Shown piece by piece: positions 3,146 through 35,483 of a DNA stretch of 49,666 nt. Under the pieces are notes generated by a model. The model was given only the letters and a program-made list of their open reading frames with translations, did not search any database and was not told the origin of the DNA. This stretch comes from Candidatus Gastranaerophilales bacterium (GTDB taxonomy: Bacteria; Cyanobacteriota; Vampirovibrionia; Gastranaerophilales; Gastranaerophilaceae): the NCBI GenBank assembly GCA_944322955.1, contig CALUQQ010000096.1:1-49666 (forward strand), read 5' to 3'. The position numbers were made by a program, and so were the translations under genes. The first letter of the stretch is position 1; every line of letters begins with the position of its first letter.

Positions 3146-3295
3146 TTAAAAAGTCCGCTTAATTTTTTCTGGGTGAGCGGAATTTGACAGTACAATTTCG
3201 TAGTATTCGTTTTTATCAATGTTGACGCCCATAGTTTTTGTGTCGCAGTGTTTTTTCTTTTTTTTATTTAAAAGTTTTTTGTAATCGCTTGCCAC
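3146..3295 (-). CDS. Small coupled ORF (49 codons, GTG start), unknown
   Basis: An uninterrupted reading frame of 49 codons starting with GTG at 3295. The GTG shares a base with the TAG stop of the upstream P-loop kinase gene (TAGTG), and a GAGGA sequence lies about ten bases upstream, so translational coupling is plausible. The predicted peptide is very basic in its N-terminal half (a run of lysines around residues 11-15), then reads MGVNIDKNEYYEIVLSNSA and ends in KRTF. The middle faintly recalls a ribbon-helix-helix strand, but it is too short to claim. It occupies about half of the otherwise empty 293-base gap before rplS. It may be chance, since AT-rich DNA yields such frames. Confidence 0.4.
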   Translation of the reverse strand: MASDYKKLLNKKKKKHCDTKTMGVNIDKNEYYEIVLSNSAHPEKIKRTF

Positions 3296-3958: not shown

Positions 3959-5479
3959 TTAATCCGTGTCATCTAAATTCCTTCGTATAAGGAAAACTCT
4001 TGTCTTTTTGACGTCTTGCAGAATAAAATCGTCCTTAATGTTTTTTTCAAGCTTATCCAGCATTTTGAATTTCAAATCAAGCGGGTATTGATCTTCATTT
4101 ACAACACGCATTTTGTGCAAAAGTCTTTCATAAATTCGTTCATCGTCAAGCTCTATAAGTTTATTGAATTTTTTCAGAATTTTATCTTCCGGCAAAAGGT
4201 GAATATAGCTTGCAAGGTGTTCCCGAACTTCAGGCAGCGCATGTTTTTCCGCTGCATTATAGAACATTTCGATTTTTTTAGGATTGATTTCGTCTTTCGG
4301 CACGTCAAGATCGTCGAATATTTCAGCTTTTCTTCTGTCTTTTGCAAGCAGAGGAATTTCATTCATTAAAATAGTTTGTGTGACGGGGTTGTTGCGCTGC
4401 ATAAGTCTGTCAAACAGTTTTCTGGCATCTTTATAAGGCATATATTTGAGTGCATAGGCAAGCGCAGCATCCACAAGCGGAATATTTTCGCTGAAACATT
4501 GCTCAATAAGCGGTTTGTTATCAGATAAGTGTTTTACGGAAAGCGCAAGACCGGCTTTTTTACCTGTTTCATCAAGTCCTTTTGAATGGTATATTTTCCA
4601 CCACAGCGCTTCACGATAAGGTTTTTCGGTAATTTTTATCTGGTGCAGTACATATCTTGCAGTGCGATTTGTATTTTTAACCCGGTTAACTACTCTTACT
4701 CCGCCCCAATCATAGCTGTAATTGTTGATTTTGTTGTGGCCATTTGGCATTGCAAGTTCTTCGTCGGTTAATTTAGCCCCCCATTTGTATTCGTCAACAA
4801 CTCTTTCGGGCTGGGGTAAATTGTTGTCGATAAAATTGTCTACGAGATATCCCGCTTCAATATTCCCAAAATAAAATTTGCCGCGCTGAGTATTTACTCC
4901 AATGTTTTCCATCCAATATTCGGCGGTATTTATTTCTGCGTAATTGCCGTGACTTTTGTATCTATGCCATTCACGCCCTTTATCAGCTACAGTGAATACT
5001 TTTATTATGTAATCATCATTCGTTACATAATCATGCACCCCTTCAATTTTAAACGCGCTGCCATAGTCCCCTCTGCCTAAAAATTTTAGATCAAACTCTT
5101 TATCCGGTTCTATCAAATTGTATTTTTCAAAAACCTTTTTAAGATTTTCCACTGTGGAGTCGGGACGTCTGTTCCTGAATTCACTGTCAGAATTTTCAAC
5201 ACCCGGTTTGAATGCGCGGATTTCCACTGCTGCTGTGTCAAAGGACTTCATTATTTCACGTATGGCGGCTTCACGGTTTTCCTCCGGCAGCCGGTAAAAT
5301 ATTCCGGGAGGTATTTGGCCTACATAACTTGTCTGAGACGGATCGCGTTTGTTCATTATTTCTAAAATATCTTTTTTTCCGTCTATATACATGCGGTGTT
5401 TCATTTTTTTTGTCATACCGCTGAAATTAGGGTTGTATCTGTTGTTTGTTGTGTAATTTTGTATTGCTTGAATTATCAT
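3959..5479 (-). CDS. Kinase-fold-like protein with helical repeat tail, unknown role
   Basis: A 506-residue protein I do not recognise as a named family. Residues 130-260 look like a divergent protein-kinase fold: a glycine-rich loop FLGRGDYGSAFKI (133-145), a strand ending in a candidate ATP-lysine YIIKVF (Lys160), a candidate partner Glu182 in a helix (YAEINTAEYWM), and a late GHNKINNYSYDWGG (247-260) that could combine a shortened catalytic loop with a DWG metal motif (Asp257). The canonical HRD is absent. Residues 305-500 are alpha-helical and read like HEAT-type repeats. There is no signal peptide; the N-terminus contains NPNFSG. No Shine-Dalgarno is present; a TGTTATTAA element ends six bases before the ATG. 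The kinase reading is inference from pattern alone. Confidence 0.65.
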   Translation of the reverse strand: MIIQAIQNYTTNNRYNPNFSGMTKKMKHRMYIDGKKDILEIMNKRDPSQTSYVGQIPPGIFYRLPEENREAAIREIMKSFDTAAVEIRAFKPGVENSDSEFRNRRPDSTVENLKKVFEKYNLIEPDKEFDLKFLGRGDYGSAFKIEGVHDYVTNDDYIIKVFTVADKGREWHRYKSHGNYAEINTAEYWMENIGVNTQRGKFYFGNIEAGYLVDNFIDNNLPQPERVVDEYKWGAKLTDEELAMPNGHNKINNYSYDWGGVRVVNRVKNTNRTARYVLHQIKITEKPYREALWWKIYHSKGLDETGKKAGLALSVKHLSDNKPLIEQCFSENIPLVDAALAYALKYMPYKDARKLFDRLMQRNNPVTQTILMNEIPLLAKDRRKAEIFDDLDVPKDEINPKKIEMFYNAAEKHALPEVREHLASYIHLLPEDKILKKFNKLIELDDERIYERLLHKMRVVNEDQYPLDLKFKMLDKLEKNIKDDFILQDVKKTRVFLIRRNLDDTD

Positions 5480-5628: not shown

Positions 5629-6501
5629 ATGGCATTAAATTTTCAGGAACTTGTATTTAATTTGCAGAAATTTTGGGCAGACAGAGGTTGTATAATCCAG
5701 CAGCCTTATGACATAGAAAAAGGTGCGTCAACAATGAATCCGGCTACTTTTTTAAGAGCACTCGGTCCTGAACCTTTTAATACAGCCATGATTGAACCCT
5801 GCAGACGTCCTACAGACGCCAGATACGGTGAAAACCCTAACCGGCTCGGGCATTATTTTCAGTTTCAGGTTATTTTAAAACCGTCGCCAGACGATGCTCA
5901 GGAACTTTATTTGAAAAGCCTTGAGGCCATGGGAATTGATTTGAAAGAACATGACGTACGTTTTGTTGAAGATAACTGGGAATCTCCGACACTTGGTGCC
6001 GCAGGCGTGGGCTGGGAAGTTTGGCTTGATGGTATGGAAATTACGCAGTTTACGTATTTTCAGCAGGTAGGCGGGTTAGAGGTGAAGCCTGTTGCGCTGG
6101 AATTGACTTACGGTCTTGAGCGGATCGCTATGTATTTGCAAAATAAAGAATCGGTTTATGATATCATGTGGAATGATAAGCTTAAATACGGTGATATTTA
6201 CCTCCAAAATGAAATTGAACAGTCAAAATATAATTTTGAAGTTTCAGATGCGGATGCTTTATTCAAAATGTTTGATTTATATCAAAAAGAGGTTGATAAT
6301 TGTATTGGTGCAAAGCTTGTTTTGCCAGCTTATGATTATGTTTTAAAATGCTCTCATACATTCAACTTGCTGGATGCAAGAGGTGTAATCAGCAAGGATG
6401 AAAGAATTAACTTTATAAACAGAGTCAGAACAATGGCGTCAGCTGTTGCTAAATTGTACGTAGAACAAAGAGAACAAATGGGTTTTCCTCTTTGTAAATA
6501 A
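5629..6501 (+). CDS. glyQ: Glycyl-tRNA synthetase alpha subunit
   Basis: The catalytic alpha chain of the tetrameric class II glycyl-tRNA synthetase, 290 residues and full length. Characteristic stretches are the N-terminal [20 protein letters not shown], the motif [18 protein letters not shown], and [20 protein letters not shown], with [20 protein letters not shown] in the active-site region. The beta subunit gene glyS, which is adjacent in many bacteria, is not downstream; two permeases follow instead. Separation of glyQ and glyS is usual in cyanobacteria, which fits the suspected lineage. Confidence 0.97.
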
Positions 6502-18730: not shown

Positions 18731-19831
18731 TTAGATTTGATTTAATTTATCAAGTGCTGCCGCTGCTGCGTCTTGAACCCCTTTGTCCTGATCGTTCTTA
18801 GCGATTGTGAACAATGTTGTCAAATCTTTTTTGTATTCGGGGTTTTGAATATAGCTTAAAGCTTCAATTGCGGATGTTCTTACCATCGGGTTCGGGTTGT
18901 CTTTTAATTGGTCAACGATTGTCATAGCACCCGGTAATTCGGTCAAAGGAACAGTTGTTCCTGTTAATTTTTGGACTTCATCAGCGTATAATTTTTCTAA
19001 GATTGCTGATGTGAACATTGCATAGCTTTTATTTCTTTCAGCTTGTTCCATCGGAGTGATTGTAGTTGCCAATGCTTTTTCCTGATCTGAGATTTGCTGG
19101 CCGGCCATTAATTTTTGTCTTGCGTCAATTTGTTCCTGCGTCGGGCCTGCTAGTTTACTTGAATCAGTATTGATTATATTTGTCAAAGCATCTACGATTT
19201 TTGAGTCTAAAAGTTCGGTAGCTTTTTGCTTTTGTGATTCATCATTTACCATATTGGCAATTTCTTCCATTGCATTTGCCTGAACTTCAAAGTCCGGGTT
19301 TGACAATTTGGCAATAAAACCGTTCAAATCAACTTGTGGAGCTGCATTAACAGGCGGAACAACTTCTACCTGAGGTGTTTGTTGAGGTTCTGCAGCAGGA
19401 ACAGTCGCCACCGGTGCAGGCTGCGGAGCCTGATTAATATTTACTTGTTGAGGTGCCTGCGGAGGTATTTCTACCACTTGCGGCGCCGGAACTGCCGGAC
19501 ACGGAGGGCACGGCGGACATTGGTTTACGACAGGCGGAAACGGCTGCTGTATTGGCTCCTGCTGAACCGGTTGTTGTTGAACTGGCTGCTGCGGCATGTA
19601 ATAAGGCTGTTGTACAGGCTGATAATACGGCTGGTTTACGGCCTGAGGATAACCATATAATTGTGTCTGCGGGTATGTATAATACGGGTTTGTTACCTGT
19701 GTATACTGGGGATTGTATTGCGGCTGTTGAACAGGGCATGTGCCTACAGACGGATTGTGAATATCAATTTTTACAGCATTATAATTCGGCTGTTGTAATT
19801 GATAATTGGGTAAAGCTGGAACTTGTAACAT
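18731..19831 (-). CDS. Pro/Gln-rich protein with C-terminal HEAT-like repeats
   Basis: A 366-residue protein in two parts. Residues 1-165 are low complexity: Tyr/Gln/Pro repeats (QPYYQPVQQPYYMPQQPVQQ) and a CPPCPPCP stretch. Residues 165-366 are alpha-helical and end with HEAT-like units, for example MVRTSAIEALSYIQNPEYKK and KGVQDAAAAALDKLNQI. No signal peptide or membrane segment, so it is probably cytoplasmic, perhaps a scaffold. The N-terminal NAVKIDIHNPSVG is not repetitive and may be a short binding motif. Ribosome site AAAGGA precedes the ATG. Function unknown. Confidence 0.75.
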   Translation of the reverse strand: MLQVPALPNYQLQQPNYNAVKIDIHNPSVGTCPVQQPQYNPQYTQVTNPYYTYPQTQLYGYPQAVNQPYYQPVQQPYYMPQQPVQQQPVQQEPIQQPFPPVVNQCPPCPPCPAVPAPQVVEIPPQAPQQVNINQAPQPAPVATVPAAEPQQTPQVEVVPPVNAAPQVDLNGFIAKLSNPDFEVQANAMEEIANMVNDESQKQKATELLDSKIVDALTNIINTDSSKLAGPTQEQIDARQKLMAGQQISDQEKALATTITPMEQAERNKSYAMFTSAILEKLYADEVQKLTGTTVPLTELPGAMTIVDQLKDNPNPMVRTSAIEALSYIQNPEYKKDLTTLFTIAKNDQDKGVQDAAAAALDKLNQI

Positions 19832-33794: not shown

Positions 33795-35483
33795 ATGGTT
33801 AGCAGTGTTCAACAAAGTTATATTGTGCAAAATCCTTTTGGCGTTCCAAAAAATGACGGCAGATATTATATTAGTGCAAAAACAGCGAAGGATATATTTG
33901 TAGCTGCGGAAAACGATAAAAATAAAAAAGGCGAAAGGTTAGGATTTATAATTGTTGCAAGCTCACTTGCAGCAGCACTCGGAGTATTTGTTGCAGTAAA
34001 AGGTTTGCCGAAAAATACTTACAGATGGATTCAAAAATGGGGTCAGCACCTTGAGGATAAGGTTAATAAACGTAAACTGGCCGGGAAAAGCGGGCCTGTG
34101 ACCTCATTTTACAATAGTCTTTTTAAAAATATTAATACTTTAACAGATAAATCACGCGGACTTAACAATTTTGGGACAATCAAAGATTTGATGTTTACAA
34201 AATTAATGTACAAAAATAAATACACTAAAAAAATTCATAATAAAATTACTTCATTGTTTGAACGTCTGGCAAAACGTACGGTTAACAAAGCTTACAAAAA
34301 ATCTGACAAACAATTTACAGAACTTTTCAGAACTTATTCGGATACGAATAAGTTAATTCTAAGTGTAAATCCGTCGCGTGAAGTTACGATAAACGGTGTC
34401 ACCAAAAAAGTATCGGAATGGGTGGATGAACTTGGCGCAAGGCAGATAAGTATTAAAAATGCCTTAAATGACGGTTTCGGCAAATCAGCCCGTAATGATA
34501 GGTATATTAAAATGTTAGATGCTGATAACGGCTTGGAAGAAAGGGTTTGGAATGTTCTTGTGGATAAAAATGATAAAAAGCGTGCTGACAAATTGCTTAC
34601 AACATTTATTGCGGAAGATTCGCTTGCTGCCGATAAAATGTCTATCATAAGAACTACTGATTCGTTCAGAAATAAAATTACCCACAATATCACTGATAAT
34701 TATAACGCTTCAAAACATGCACTGGATAATATTGCGTCTTTTCTTGACCCTTCGGATAAGATTTCAAGAGAACTTTTGAAAGAACTTCGTTCGGGGCTTT
34801 TATCTTATAAAAAACTGTCCGGACCTTATGAAAAACAATACAGAGAAATCGCAAACAAAGAAATAGTTTATAATCTAAAACGTTTGGCCGGTCGTTTAAA
34901 GGAAACATCCGATATGTTCGGTTACAACAAAAGGGCAGTAAATCAGGTTGAAGCGTTTGTTCAGGAAATCGAAAATATTTTGTGCAAGAGTTCAAAAGGT
35001 GGATTACAGGAAGTTCTTTCGATTTACAAAGGGCTTTTGCCATACGATAGGTATGTAAAATTGCGTAATGCTACGAACAATGCTGTTAATAAATTTGATA
35101 AAGCAATTGATGTTGAAACCGACAGATTTTTTGATAAATTACGTGACTTAAAGCTTGGGTCAGGCCCGACAGATGTTTTGTCGCTTTTGGGTTCTGTCGG
35201 AAGTGTCGGATTAGGGCTTACGCTTGCCGATAATAAAGAAGAAAGTACGTCAGCGCTTTTAAAATACGGTATTCCGGTAATCGGCGGTGTTGCAACATCA
35301 ATTGTAATGACTGTCGGGCTTGTATCGGGTGTTAAATCCCTTATTTACGGCTTTTTGTCCAGTTTGTTGATTAACAGATTAGGGGTAGAGTTTGATAAAC
35401 ATATAAAAGAATATAATAAAAAACAAATGGATATTCAGCATAATCAGGTTGTAAAAGCTGAAATTGTCTCTAAAAACGTTTAG
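33795..35483 (+). CDS. Large membrane-associated protein, unknown
   Basis: A 562-residue protein I do not recognise. One hydrophobic segment lies near the N-terminus (about 49-68, GFIIVASSLAAALGVFVAVK) and a hydrophobic hairpin near the C-terminus (about 450-520, with LLGSVGSVGLGLTL and GGVATSIVMTVGLVSG). Between them about 380 residues are helical and very Lys/Asn-rich, with a folded middle region (SREVTINGVTKKVSEWVDEL). No enzyme motif is seen. The N-terminal QNPFGVPKNDGRYYIS has the same Asn-Pro-Phe flavour as the start of the kinase-like protein at 3959-5479, but this is weak. It stands alone between lpxB and dgt. Confidence 0.75.
   Translation: MVSSVQQSYIVQNPFGVPKNDGRYYISAKTAKDIFVAAENDKNKKGERLGFIIVASSLAAALGVFVAVKGLPKNTYRWIQKWGQHLEDKVNKRKLAGKSGPVTSFYNSLFKNINTLTDKSRGLNNFGTIKDLMFTKLMYKNKYTKKIHNKITSLFERLAKRTVNKAYKKSDKQFTELFRTYSDTNKLILSVNPSREVTINGVTKKVSEWVDELGARQISIKNALNDGFGKSARNDRYIKMLDADNGLEERVWNVLVDKNDKKRADKLLTTFIAEDSLAADKMSIIRTTDSFRNKITHNITDNYNASKHALDNIASFLDPSDKISRELLKELRSGLLSYKKLSGPYEKQYREIANKEIVYNLKRLAGRLKETSDMFGYNKRAVNQVEAFVQEIENILCKSSKGGLQEVLSIYKGLLPYDRYVKLRNATNNAVNKFDKAIDVETDRFFDKLRDLKLGSGPTDVLSLLGSVGSVGLGLTLADNKEESTSALLKYGIPVIGGVATSIVMTVGLVSGVKSLIYGFLSSLLINRLGVEFDKHIKEYNKKQMDIQHNQVVKAEIVSKNV

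What the first reader, a model, noticed from the sequence alone, without database searches (positions are those of the whole stretch)
3959..5479. Divergent kinase-like fold fused to helical repeats
Glycine-rich loop, candidate Lys160 and Glu182, and a DWG near residue 257 suggest an atypical kinase, but the catalytic loop is compressed and HRD is missing. A C-terminal helical solenoid follows. The combination could be an effector-like kinase or a pseudokinase not yet described in this lineage.
Basis: inference. Interest (0 to 1): 0.55.

Follow-up and report, generated by a model that had tools for sequence, protein, structure and literature searches.

The report
Unannotated gut-bacterial kinase with HEAT arm
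This gene encodes a member of a large, so far unnamed family of protein-kinase-like enzymes in gut relatives of cyanobacteria, in which the usual lower half of the kinase is cut down and a coiled row of helices follows; its target is unknown.

Summary
The 506-residue minus-strand ORF has a glycine-rich loop, K160, E182 and DWG at 257-259, then a HEAT-type solenoid (268-505). "HRD missing" needs correcting: H and R are replaced (LTD), but D239 and N249 align with the catalytic Asp and Asn of Hanks kinases (hhalign probability 93.8; rerun score 55 against at most 28 in 100 column shuffles). Of 152 non-redundant family cores, 134 reach the DxG column: all keep its Asp, and 114 keep K, E, N and D together. 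An active protein-kinase-like (PKL) enzyme is therefore likelier than a pseudokinase. The modelled core matches kinases and phosphotransferases, with a strongly reduced C-lobe. Pfam, NCBIfam, PHROGs and PADLOC give P0001 no family. The full-length profile matches 192 of 383 genomes of the order, which has few Hanks kinases. The gene is shared at the glyQ locus by three genera, under purifying selection, and often absent. Substrate and location are unknown. A disordered N-terminal leader, seen also on unrelated orphans, and a retained flagellar-type export gate keep an exported-effector reading open but unproven.

The parts
3959..5479 (-). whole gene, 506 aa, PKL core plus HEAT solenoid
   Evidence: ORF list; 92% identical ortholog over its full length; dN/dS 0.039 against it (dS about 1, near saturation)
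5408..5479 (-). N-terminal leader, residues 1-24 (NPNFSGMTK at its end)
   Evidence: pLDDT below 50 at residues 1-19; FxG[LMIVFAT] in 72 of 118 family N-termini against a mean of 5.8 in shuffles
5105..5416 (-). helical module residues 22-125 ahead of the glycine loop, with conserved G54 and P57
   Evidence: helices; G54 in 124 and P57 in 126 of 131 cores
4676..5104 (-). protein-kinase-like core residues 126-268 (N-lobe, hinge, catalytic loop, DxG)
5054..5077 (-). glycine-rich loop GRGDYGSA, residues 135-142
   Evidence: G137 in 146 of 150 and G140 in 114 of 150 cores with a residue there
5000..5002 (-). K160, VAIK-type lysine
   Evidence: K in 146 of 150
4928..4951 (-). HGNYAEIN, residues 177-184, start of helix C; E182 is the salt-bridge Glu candidate
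   Evidence: E182 in 147 of 149, G178 in 141 of 145, H177 in 107 of 145
4763..4765 (-). D239, catalytic Asp candidate (aligned with the HRD Asp)
   Evidence: invariant in 29 sequences; hhalign aligns LTD with HRD; pLDDT below 50 right after it in the full model and at it in the core model
4733..4735 (-). N249, metal-binding Asn candidate
   Evidence: N in 122 of 139; aligned with the catalytic-loop Asn
4700..4711 (-). D257-W-G-G260, DFG-like motif
   Evidence: D257 in 134 of 134 with a residue there (in the earlier set 113 of 114)
3965..4678 (-). HEAT-type helical solenoid, residues 268-505
   Evidence: PP2A scaffold Z 11.9; alpha-rep Z 11.2; alpha-rep hits by sequence profile, best E 0.0096

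Best explanation
The gene encodes a member of an unnamed family of the protein-kinase-like (PKL) superfamily, abundant in the gut order Gastranaerophilales and found so far only within its phylum, the only one searched by profile. Mechanism proposed: ATP is held by the glycine loop, K160 and E182; metal ions by N249 and D257; D239 positions the acceptor hydroxyl; the C-terminal HEAT solenoid stands in for the missing C-lobe helices and docks a protein partner, so that a hydroxyl on that protein is phosphorylated. Shown: conserved residues, profile similarity to Hanks kinases, kinase-like model, HEAT fold, shared locus in three genera, purifying selection. Inferred: catalytic activity, protein substrate, role of the solenoid.
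For: K, E, N and D kept in 114 of 134 cores, D257 in 134 of 134. hhalign with 13 Hanks-type kinases of the phylum: probability 93.8, E 1.8e-7, with K160, E182, LTD/HRD, N249 and D257/DFG in register; shuffle control. Core model: Foldseek best LicA choline kinase E 3.2e-4, 49 of 50 listed rows kinases or phosphotransferases; VIA-align: 47 of 50 listed rows have titles naming PKL proteins, 3 are chains of pre-40S particles whose titles do not name the chain; best Z 7.5 (APH(2'')-Ia), AfRio1 Z 7.4 (144 residues, 4.4 A), PKR Z 7.3 (118 residues, 3.9 A). Profile A8 against PDB sequences: the 60 shown of 192 matches are all protein kinases, mostly at the glycine loop. HEAT solenoid. Some distant relatives have a near-textbook loop, e.g. 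GDRKPENRINGTIIDYGG in L093. dN/dS 0.039 and 0.059 against two orthologs. Beside glyQ in 8 of 29 loci from the search for related loci, three genera (genera matched through contig lengths).
Against: No curated kinase model matches P0001, and Foldseek with the full model finds nothing at E 0.001 or better. The core model is only moderately confident (pLDDT 76.8, pTM 0.62), and a Z of 7.5 lies in the range the tool warns may be a common arrangement. The catalytic-loop segment is below pLDDT 50 (241-246 in the full model, 239-246 in the core model), so its geometry is not established. 17 of 134 cores lack the Asn; 10 of 103 with the Asn have no Asp 3-12 residues before it, and an Asp in such a window is not rare by chance. 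With profiles A1 and A5 the best PDB sequence matches include non-kinases.
Confidence: 0.58

Rival explanations
1. Exported effector kinase: the disordered N-terminal leader routes the protein out of the cell through the retained flagellar-type type III export apparatus, and it phosphorylates proteins of the animal or protist host. This is about location and can be true together with the best explanation.
For: Leader motif in 72 of 118 family N-termini and on unrelated orphan proteins; residues 1-19 disordered; FHIPEP export gate in 29 of 30 genomes including the window's, with fliF, fliH and flhA clustered in the window's genome; in one relative an ORF with the same leader type at an internal Met lies between flhB and flhA (L277, gene names by eye); the gene is often absent at its locus; a HEAT arm suits a protein target; a 2014 study says only three of nine Gastranaerophilales genomes had complete flagella sets (PMC4040986, passages).
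Against: No program for secretion signals was run; no VirB4 T4SS protein found in 30 genomes; injectisome secretin, needle, hook and flagellin were not searched, so the gate may serve ordinary flagella; dN/dS far below 1, no sign of an arms race; weak relatives also in genomes of the phylum outside the class. The leader signal outside the family is modest and depends on the pattern: 18 in the first 15 residues of 487 proteins for one pattern, no excess for the simpler F[STK]G; of three patterns two exceed their control maximum and one does not; the patterns were written after seeing examples.
Confidence: 0.3
2. Pseudokinase scaffold: the kinase fold is kept for binding only and the HEAT arm assembles a complex.
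For: HR of HRD lost, compressed loop, reduced C-lobe, poorly modelled catalytic loop.
Against: K, E, N, D kept in 114 of 134 cores and D239 invariant in the close set; pseudokinases commonly lose some of these (general knowledge).
Confidence: 0.17
3. Other ATP-dependent chemistry on the kinase fold (AMPylation as in SelO, glutamylation as in SidJ).
For: SelO and SidJ show that divergent kinase folds can do this (PMC12599244, section 4 part 1); the short Asn-to-DYG spacing resembles SelO by eye.
Against: hhalign with 6 SelO sequences of the phylum: probability 0.4; but the same thin SelO alignment also fails against true kinases (1.0), so the test is weak.
Confidence: 0.12
4. Small-molecule kinase related to LicA, MTR kinase or APH.
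For: These are among the best structural matches.
Against: They lead by no clear margin over RIO and protein kinases (Z 7.5, 7.4, 7.3, ties); a HEAT solenoid would be unusual for a small-molecule kinase (general knowledge).
Confidence: 0.1

Closest known systems
Hanks-type bacterial Ser/Thr kinases (PF00069)
   Same: Glycine loop, K, helix-C E, catalytic D, N and DxG align in order
   Different: No match to the Pfam model; HR of HRD lost; shorter from hinge to DxG (median 42 residues); C-lobe helices largely absent; HEAT solenoid instead
RIO kinases, Bud32/PRPK, ArkI (small atypical kinases)
   Same: Structural matches over N-lobe to DxG, AfRio1 Z 7.4, 144 residues, 4.4 A
   Different: 10-17% identity in the aligned parts; no sequence evidence of membership
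LicA choline kinase / MTR kinase / APH(2'')
   Same: Best Foldseek and VIA rows
   Different: No Pfam APH match in P0001; fused to HEAT repeats
SelO AMPylase family (PF02696)
   Same: Short spacing between the Asn and a DYG motif (by eye)
   Different: No profile similarity found (weak test)
HopBF1 (minimal, atypical effector kinase)
   Same: Described as a minimal and atypical kinase fold (PMC9950578, passages)
   Different: Homology not tested; delivery of P0001 unknown

Membership tests
Protein-kinase-like (PKL) superfamily | Five-stranded N-lobe sheet with helix C | tested here: met
   Strands 130-136, 140-150, 155-162, 202-206, 211-215 and helix 179-192 in the predicted model
Protein-kinase-like (PKL) superfamily | Nucleotide and metal residues K, E, N, D | tested here: met
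   114 of 134 cores keep all four; all present in P0001
Protein-kinase-like (PKL) superfamily | Structural similarity of the core to solved PKL folds | tested here: met
   47 of 50 VIA rows name PKL proteins, Z up to 7.5; modest Z, see the Against line
Hanks-type protein kinase (PF00069/PF07714) | Match to the curated profile | tested here: not met
   No kinase model for P0001 up to E 10; none among the families listed for 29 members up to E 1
Hanks-type protein kinase (PF00069/PF07714) | HRD motif | tested here: not met
   LTD in P0001; the Asp alone is kept
Hanks-type protein kinase (PF00069/PF07714) | Helical C-lobe with activation segment and helix F | tested here: inconclusive
   14 of 134 cores lie in ORFs that end within 30 residues of the DxG; in P0001 the helices from 268 on align with HEAT proteins
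SelO (PF02696) | Profile similarity | tested here: inconclusive
   hhalign probability 0.4, but the control STK-SelO also gives only 1.0
HEAT repeat protein | HEAT/alpha-rep solenoid fold | tested here: met
   PP2A scaffold Z 11.9; HEAT_2 over cut-off in the homolog L195, E 4.7e-9; P0001 itself has no Pfam HEAT match
KINtaro PKL families (72) | Match to a KINtaro model | not testable with these tools
   Only the first of three parts of the paper text was read; models and supplement not held
Secreted effector kinase | Delivery out of the bacterium | not testable with these tools
   Only correlates found

The most novel reading that the evidence does not exclude
Gut Gastranaerophilales that have lost functional flagella keep a stripped flagellar export apparatus as a secretion system and use it to send out a repertoire of leader-tagged orphan proteins, in which a lineage-specific family of PKL kinases with hardly any C-lobe, carrying HEAT, other or no C-terminal arms, is a large class.
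Probability: 0.2. Interest if true: 0.85.

Novelty: new variant of a known kind. Interest (0 to 1): 0.55.

Why it matters
It adds an unannotated kinase-fold family, matched in half of the sampled genomes of a common animal-gut order that has few ordinary Ser/Thr kinases, and it asks how small a kinase C-lobe can be. If the enzymes are exported, these little-known gut relatives of cyanobacteria would have a direct means of acting on host proteins.

Tried and rejected
Curated libraries gave no family for P0001: Pfam only DUF5092 at E 0.021 under its cut-off, NCBIfam none, PHROGs one weak family of unknown function, PADLOC one weak Vsr. A phage or plasmid origin found no support: P0001 has no match in viral contigs, phages or plasmids; a relative from outside the class (L190) has none in plasmids or phages and a class-level one (L196) none in plasmids. 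Fold search with the full model was dominated by the solenoid, so the core was folded alone. SelO kinship: no support, weak test. T4SS delivery: no VirB4 in 30 genomes. An arms race was not supported. OspG/NleH-type and HopBF1 homology was not searched for; their absence from the lists says nothing.

Leader patterns: of three tried on 306 genes, two exceeded the maximum of 20 random internal draws (28 against 22; 22 against 17) and one did not (30 against 31). In one search F[STK]G showed no excess at the N-terminus.

The ORF calls for the wider family are mechanical; some copies are broken or interrupted (L074 in two frames, L010 with one stop) and were counted piecewise or left as they are. 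Rows dropped: of 152 non-redundant cores (P0001 included), 18 have a gap in the DxG column and are not in the n of 134; in the earlier set 17 of 131. Non-redundant means only that no core contains another; near-identical relatives remain, so counts are of sequences, not independent events. The match lists are cut, the tallies are not.

Full report
What is there. The ORF at 3959-5479 on the minus strand codes for 506 residues. The window is contig C96 of a 1.5 Mb, 78% complete genome. Of 31 named loci with relatives, 19 are titled Candidatus Gastranaerophilales, several from animal gut samples, so I take the order to be Gastranaerophilales; the class name Vampirovibrionia is recalled. Neighbours look like housekeeping genes (glyQ at 5629 plus strand, a P-loop kinase at 3295, rplS and trmD beyond; names recalled from the sequences).

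Glycine loop 135-140, K160, E182 and DWGG 257-260 are in place. In 13 diverse sequences down to 23% identity, G137, G140, K160, H177, G178, E182, F204, D257 and G259 are among the 11 invariant columns.

Kinase relationship by sequence. A profile of 34 family cores aligned with 13 Hanks-type kinases of the same phylum by hhalign gives probability 93.8, E 1.8e-7, from the glycine loop to past DFG, with K160, E182, the hinge, LTD against HRD, N249 against the loop Asn, and D257 against DFG. In my rerun the score is 55.4; 100 column shuffles reach at most 28.2 and the reversed profile 13.8. Against PDB sequences the same profile shows only protein kinases among the 60 rows printed of 192, mostly at the glycine loop, with E-values of 0.014 to 0.29, and 3.2e-5 for a chain holding two EGFR kinase stretches. 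Two earlier profiles also ranked non-kinases high.

So the catalytic loop is not gone. In several distant relatives it reads almost like a textbook one, e.g. GDRKPENRINGTIIDYGG in L093 and DDNKPRNFINGYIIDYGG in L013. In P0001 there are five more residues between D239 and N249 than in that pattern, and 7 residues between N249 and D257 (12 in PKA, recalled).

Residue counts. Of 152 non-redundant cores taken from loci up to L208, P0001 included, K160 is K in 146 of 150 with a residue there, E182 is E in 147 of 149, N249 is N in 122 of 139, D257 is D in 134 of 134. K, E, N and D together: 114 of 134; 17 lack the Asn and 4 the Lys, some both. D239 is invariant in the 29-sequence set. In the wider set its column cannot be fixed so simply: 93 of 103 sequences with the Asn have an Asp 3-12 residues before it, 10 have none.

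Fold. The full AlphaFold2 model (29 sequences) has pLDDT 85.1 and pTM 0.80; residues 1-19 and 241-246 are below 50. Its C-terminal part is a HEAT-type solenoid: PP2A scaffold Z 11.9, 222 aligned, 4.2 A, model range 268-505; alpha-rep Z 11.2. Foldseek with the full model gave nothing at E 0.001 or better in PDB or the viral library. The core alone (96-302) has pLDDT 76.8 and pTM 0.62, with the stretches that correspond to 175-177, 239-246 and 262-269 below 50. Foldseek then gives LicA choline kinase at E 3.2e-4 as the one match under 0.001, and 49 of the 50 listed rows are kinases or phosphotransferases. VIA-align: 47 of 50 rows name PKL proteins (APH(2''), Rio1, PKR, CDKL1, MPS1, Bud32, PRPK, ArkI and others), the other 3 are chains of pre-40S particles not named in the title; best Z 7.5 with rmsd 6 to 8 A, AfRio1 7.4 at 4.4 A over 144 residues, all ties. 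The tool warns that Z under 8 can be a common arrangement; here nearly all rows belong to one superfamily, which is why I accept it.

Reduced C-lobe. The hinge to DxG distance is 37-60 residues, median 42, and K to DxG 86-112, median 94, in 113 members. Of 134 cores, 14 lie in ORFs that end within 30 residues after the DxG, 56 have 31-199 residues and 64 have 200 or more. In the first group there is no room for helix F and beyond. A helical module before the glycine loop (G54 and P57 in 124 and 126 of 131 cores) is nearly always present; that it replaces the C-lobe is a guess, as no coordinates could be read.

Distribution. With the full-length profile, 192 of 383 genomes of the order match at E 0.001 (this profile includes the solenoid). 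With the core profile, 46 of 146 of the class and 98 of 292 of the phylum. The five that I read keep G137, G140, K160, HG, E182, D257 and GG, with Tyr in the Asn column. Other phyla were not searched by profile. No Pfam model over its cut-off covers the kinase core, and no NCBIfam model reaches its cut-off, in the 7 relatives that I tried. Hanks kinases (PF00069) at E 1e-5 are found in 7 of 40 genomes of the neighbourhood, 6 over the cut-off, none in the window genome. At the stricter E 1e-20 all 25 genomes from outside the order in another sample have between 5 and 49 (49 is a scoring limit) and none of its 14 Gastranaerophilales does.

Evolution. The gene lies beside glyQ in 8 of 29 loci from the search for related loci, in 7 of them with the P-loop kinase gene on its other side, in three genera (genera through contig lengths). 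In 16 genomes of the genus, glyQ was found in all; the kinase-fold gene stands beside it in 4, in 8 the P-loop kinase gene is there with no kinase-fold gene between, and 4 are other cases, one of them cut by a contig end. So the gene is probably old at this site and often lost. Against the two nearest orthologs dN/dS is 0.039 and 0.059; dS is 1.05 and 2.0, so the size is uncertain but not the direction. Its protein still changes faster than its neighbours (81% identity against 92-100% in L047). In a FastTree tree of 140 cores P0001 sits in a clade of 49 (support 1.0), of which 41 of 45 scorable members have 200 or more residues after the DxG.

Possible export. 72 of 118 family N-termini carry FxG[LMIVFAT] in residues 7-65; shuffles give 5.8 on average, 13 at most. 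Much of this may be shared ancestry. Similar leaders (MKIAAINSYNSNVNFTGIN, MQVNKTSSVNFTGIY, MITAIKNYNPSFKAAQVN) stand on unrelated proteins. The signal outside the family is modest and depends on the pattern: 21 proteins of 325 against a control mean of 9.6 and maximum 16 (the P0001 ortholog is one of the 21, and several others are clearly chance by eye); 18 in the first 15 residues of 487 proteins, 2.46 per 1000 positions against 0.25 to 1.55 in the other 19 bins, but no excess for F[STK]G; two of three patterns exceed their control maximum. The patterns were chosen after seeing examples.

The FlhA/SctV gate family FHIPEP is in 29 of 30 genomes tested; the 20 of the window's family each have a full-length one at about E 1e-215 to 1e-221. 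The window's genome has fliF, an unassigned gene, fliH and flhA in one cluster (L273; named by Pfam in the relative L274). A 2014 study says that only three of nine Gastranaerophilales genomes had complete flagella sets (PMC4040986, passages). In one relative an ORF with MRLNTNNTSFSG at an internal Met lies between flhB and flhA (L277; flhB named by eye). None of this shows export, and whether these genomes make flagella was not tested. No T4SS VirB4 was found in 30 genomes; Vampirovibrio was reported to use a T4SS (PMC4451040, passages).

Verdict. A family of PKL enzymes without a model in the libraries searched, probably active, here with a HEAT arm. I commit to protein phosphorylation as the likeliest function, at 0.58. 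Papers: PMC12599244 outline and section 4 part 1; PMC9950578, PMC4451040, PMC5877343, PMC9758233, PMC4040986 passages; PMC10870513 first of three parts. No report of this family appeared in the listings (open-licence papers only).

Noticed in passing
L273:14-5442 (window genome), L274:6160-12001, L276:3657-11922: Flagellar-type type III export cluster (fliE, fliF, an unassigned 339-aa gene, fliH, flhA; in L276 also flgB-like and fliI-like by eye). The gate gene FHIPEP is in 29 of 30 genomes tested; the cluster itself was read in three.
   Followed up: partly
L275:8626-10122: A second protein of about 490 aa with only the C-terminal half of FHIPEP, near Omp85, OmpH and a nucleoside phosphorylase; 23 of 30 genomes list one. 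Role unknown.
   Followed up: partly
L169:3519-4508, L161:3404-3994, L158:18970-19596, L073:9891-11594, L277:7814-8752, L258:25-441: Short N-terminal leader (hydrophobic start, Asn-rich stretch, then xFxG or xFxA) on unrelated proteins, several without any Pfam domain; L073 has a metallophosphatase domain.
   Followed up: partly
L258:25-1449: In genome G007 the place of the kinase gene beside glyQ is taken by two other ORFs, one with the same leader type.
   Followed up: no
L080:3032-7427: Four tandem copies of the kinase family, ORFs of 363-393 aa, in one relative.
   Followed up: no
L077:6115-12885, L078:894-7748, L079:1718-6805, L200:2134-7065: Family cores inside very long ORFs (1644 to 2285 aa) whose other parts were not identified.
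   Followed up: no
window 18731-19831: 366-aa protein with a Pro/Gln-rich N-terminal half and HEAT repeats at its C-terminus (HEAT_2 E 6.2e-9).
   Followed up: no
window 33795-35483: 562-aa orphan beginning MVSSVQQSYIVQNPFG, no Pfam family over cut-off.
   Followed up: no
order of the window genome: Hanks-type kinases are scarce (6 of 40 neighbouring genomes over the Pfam cut-off) although common elsewhere in the phylum.
   Followed up: partly
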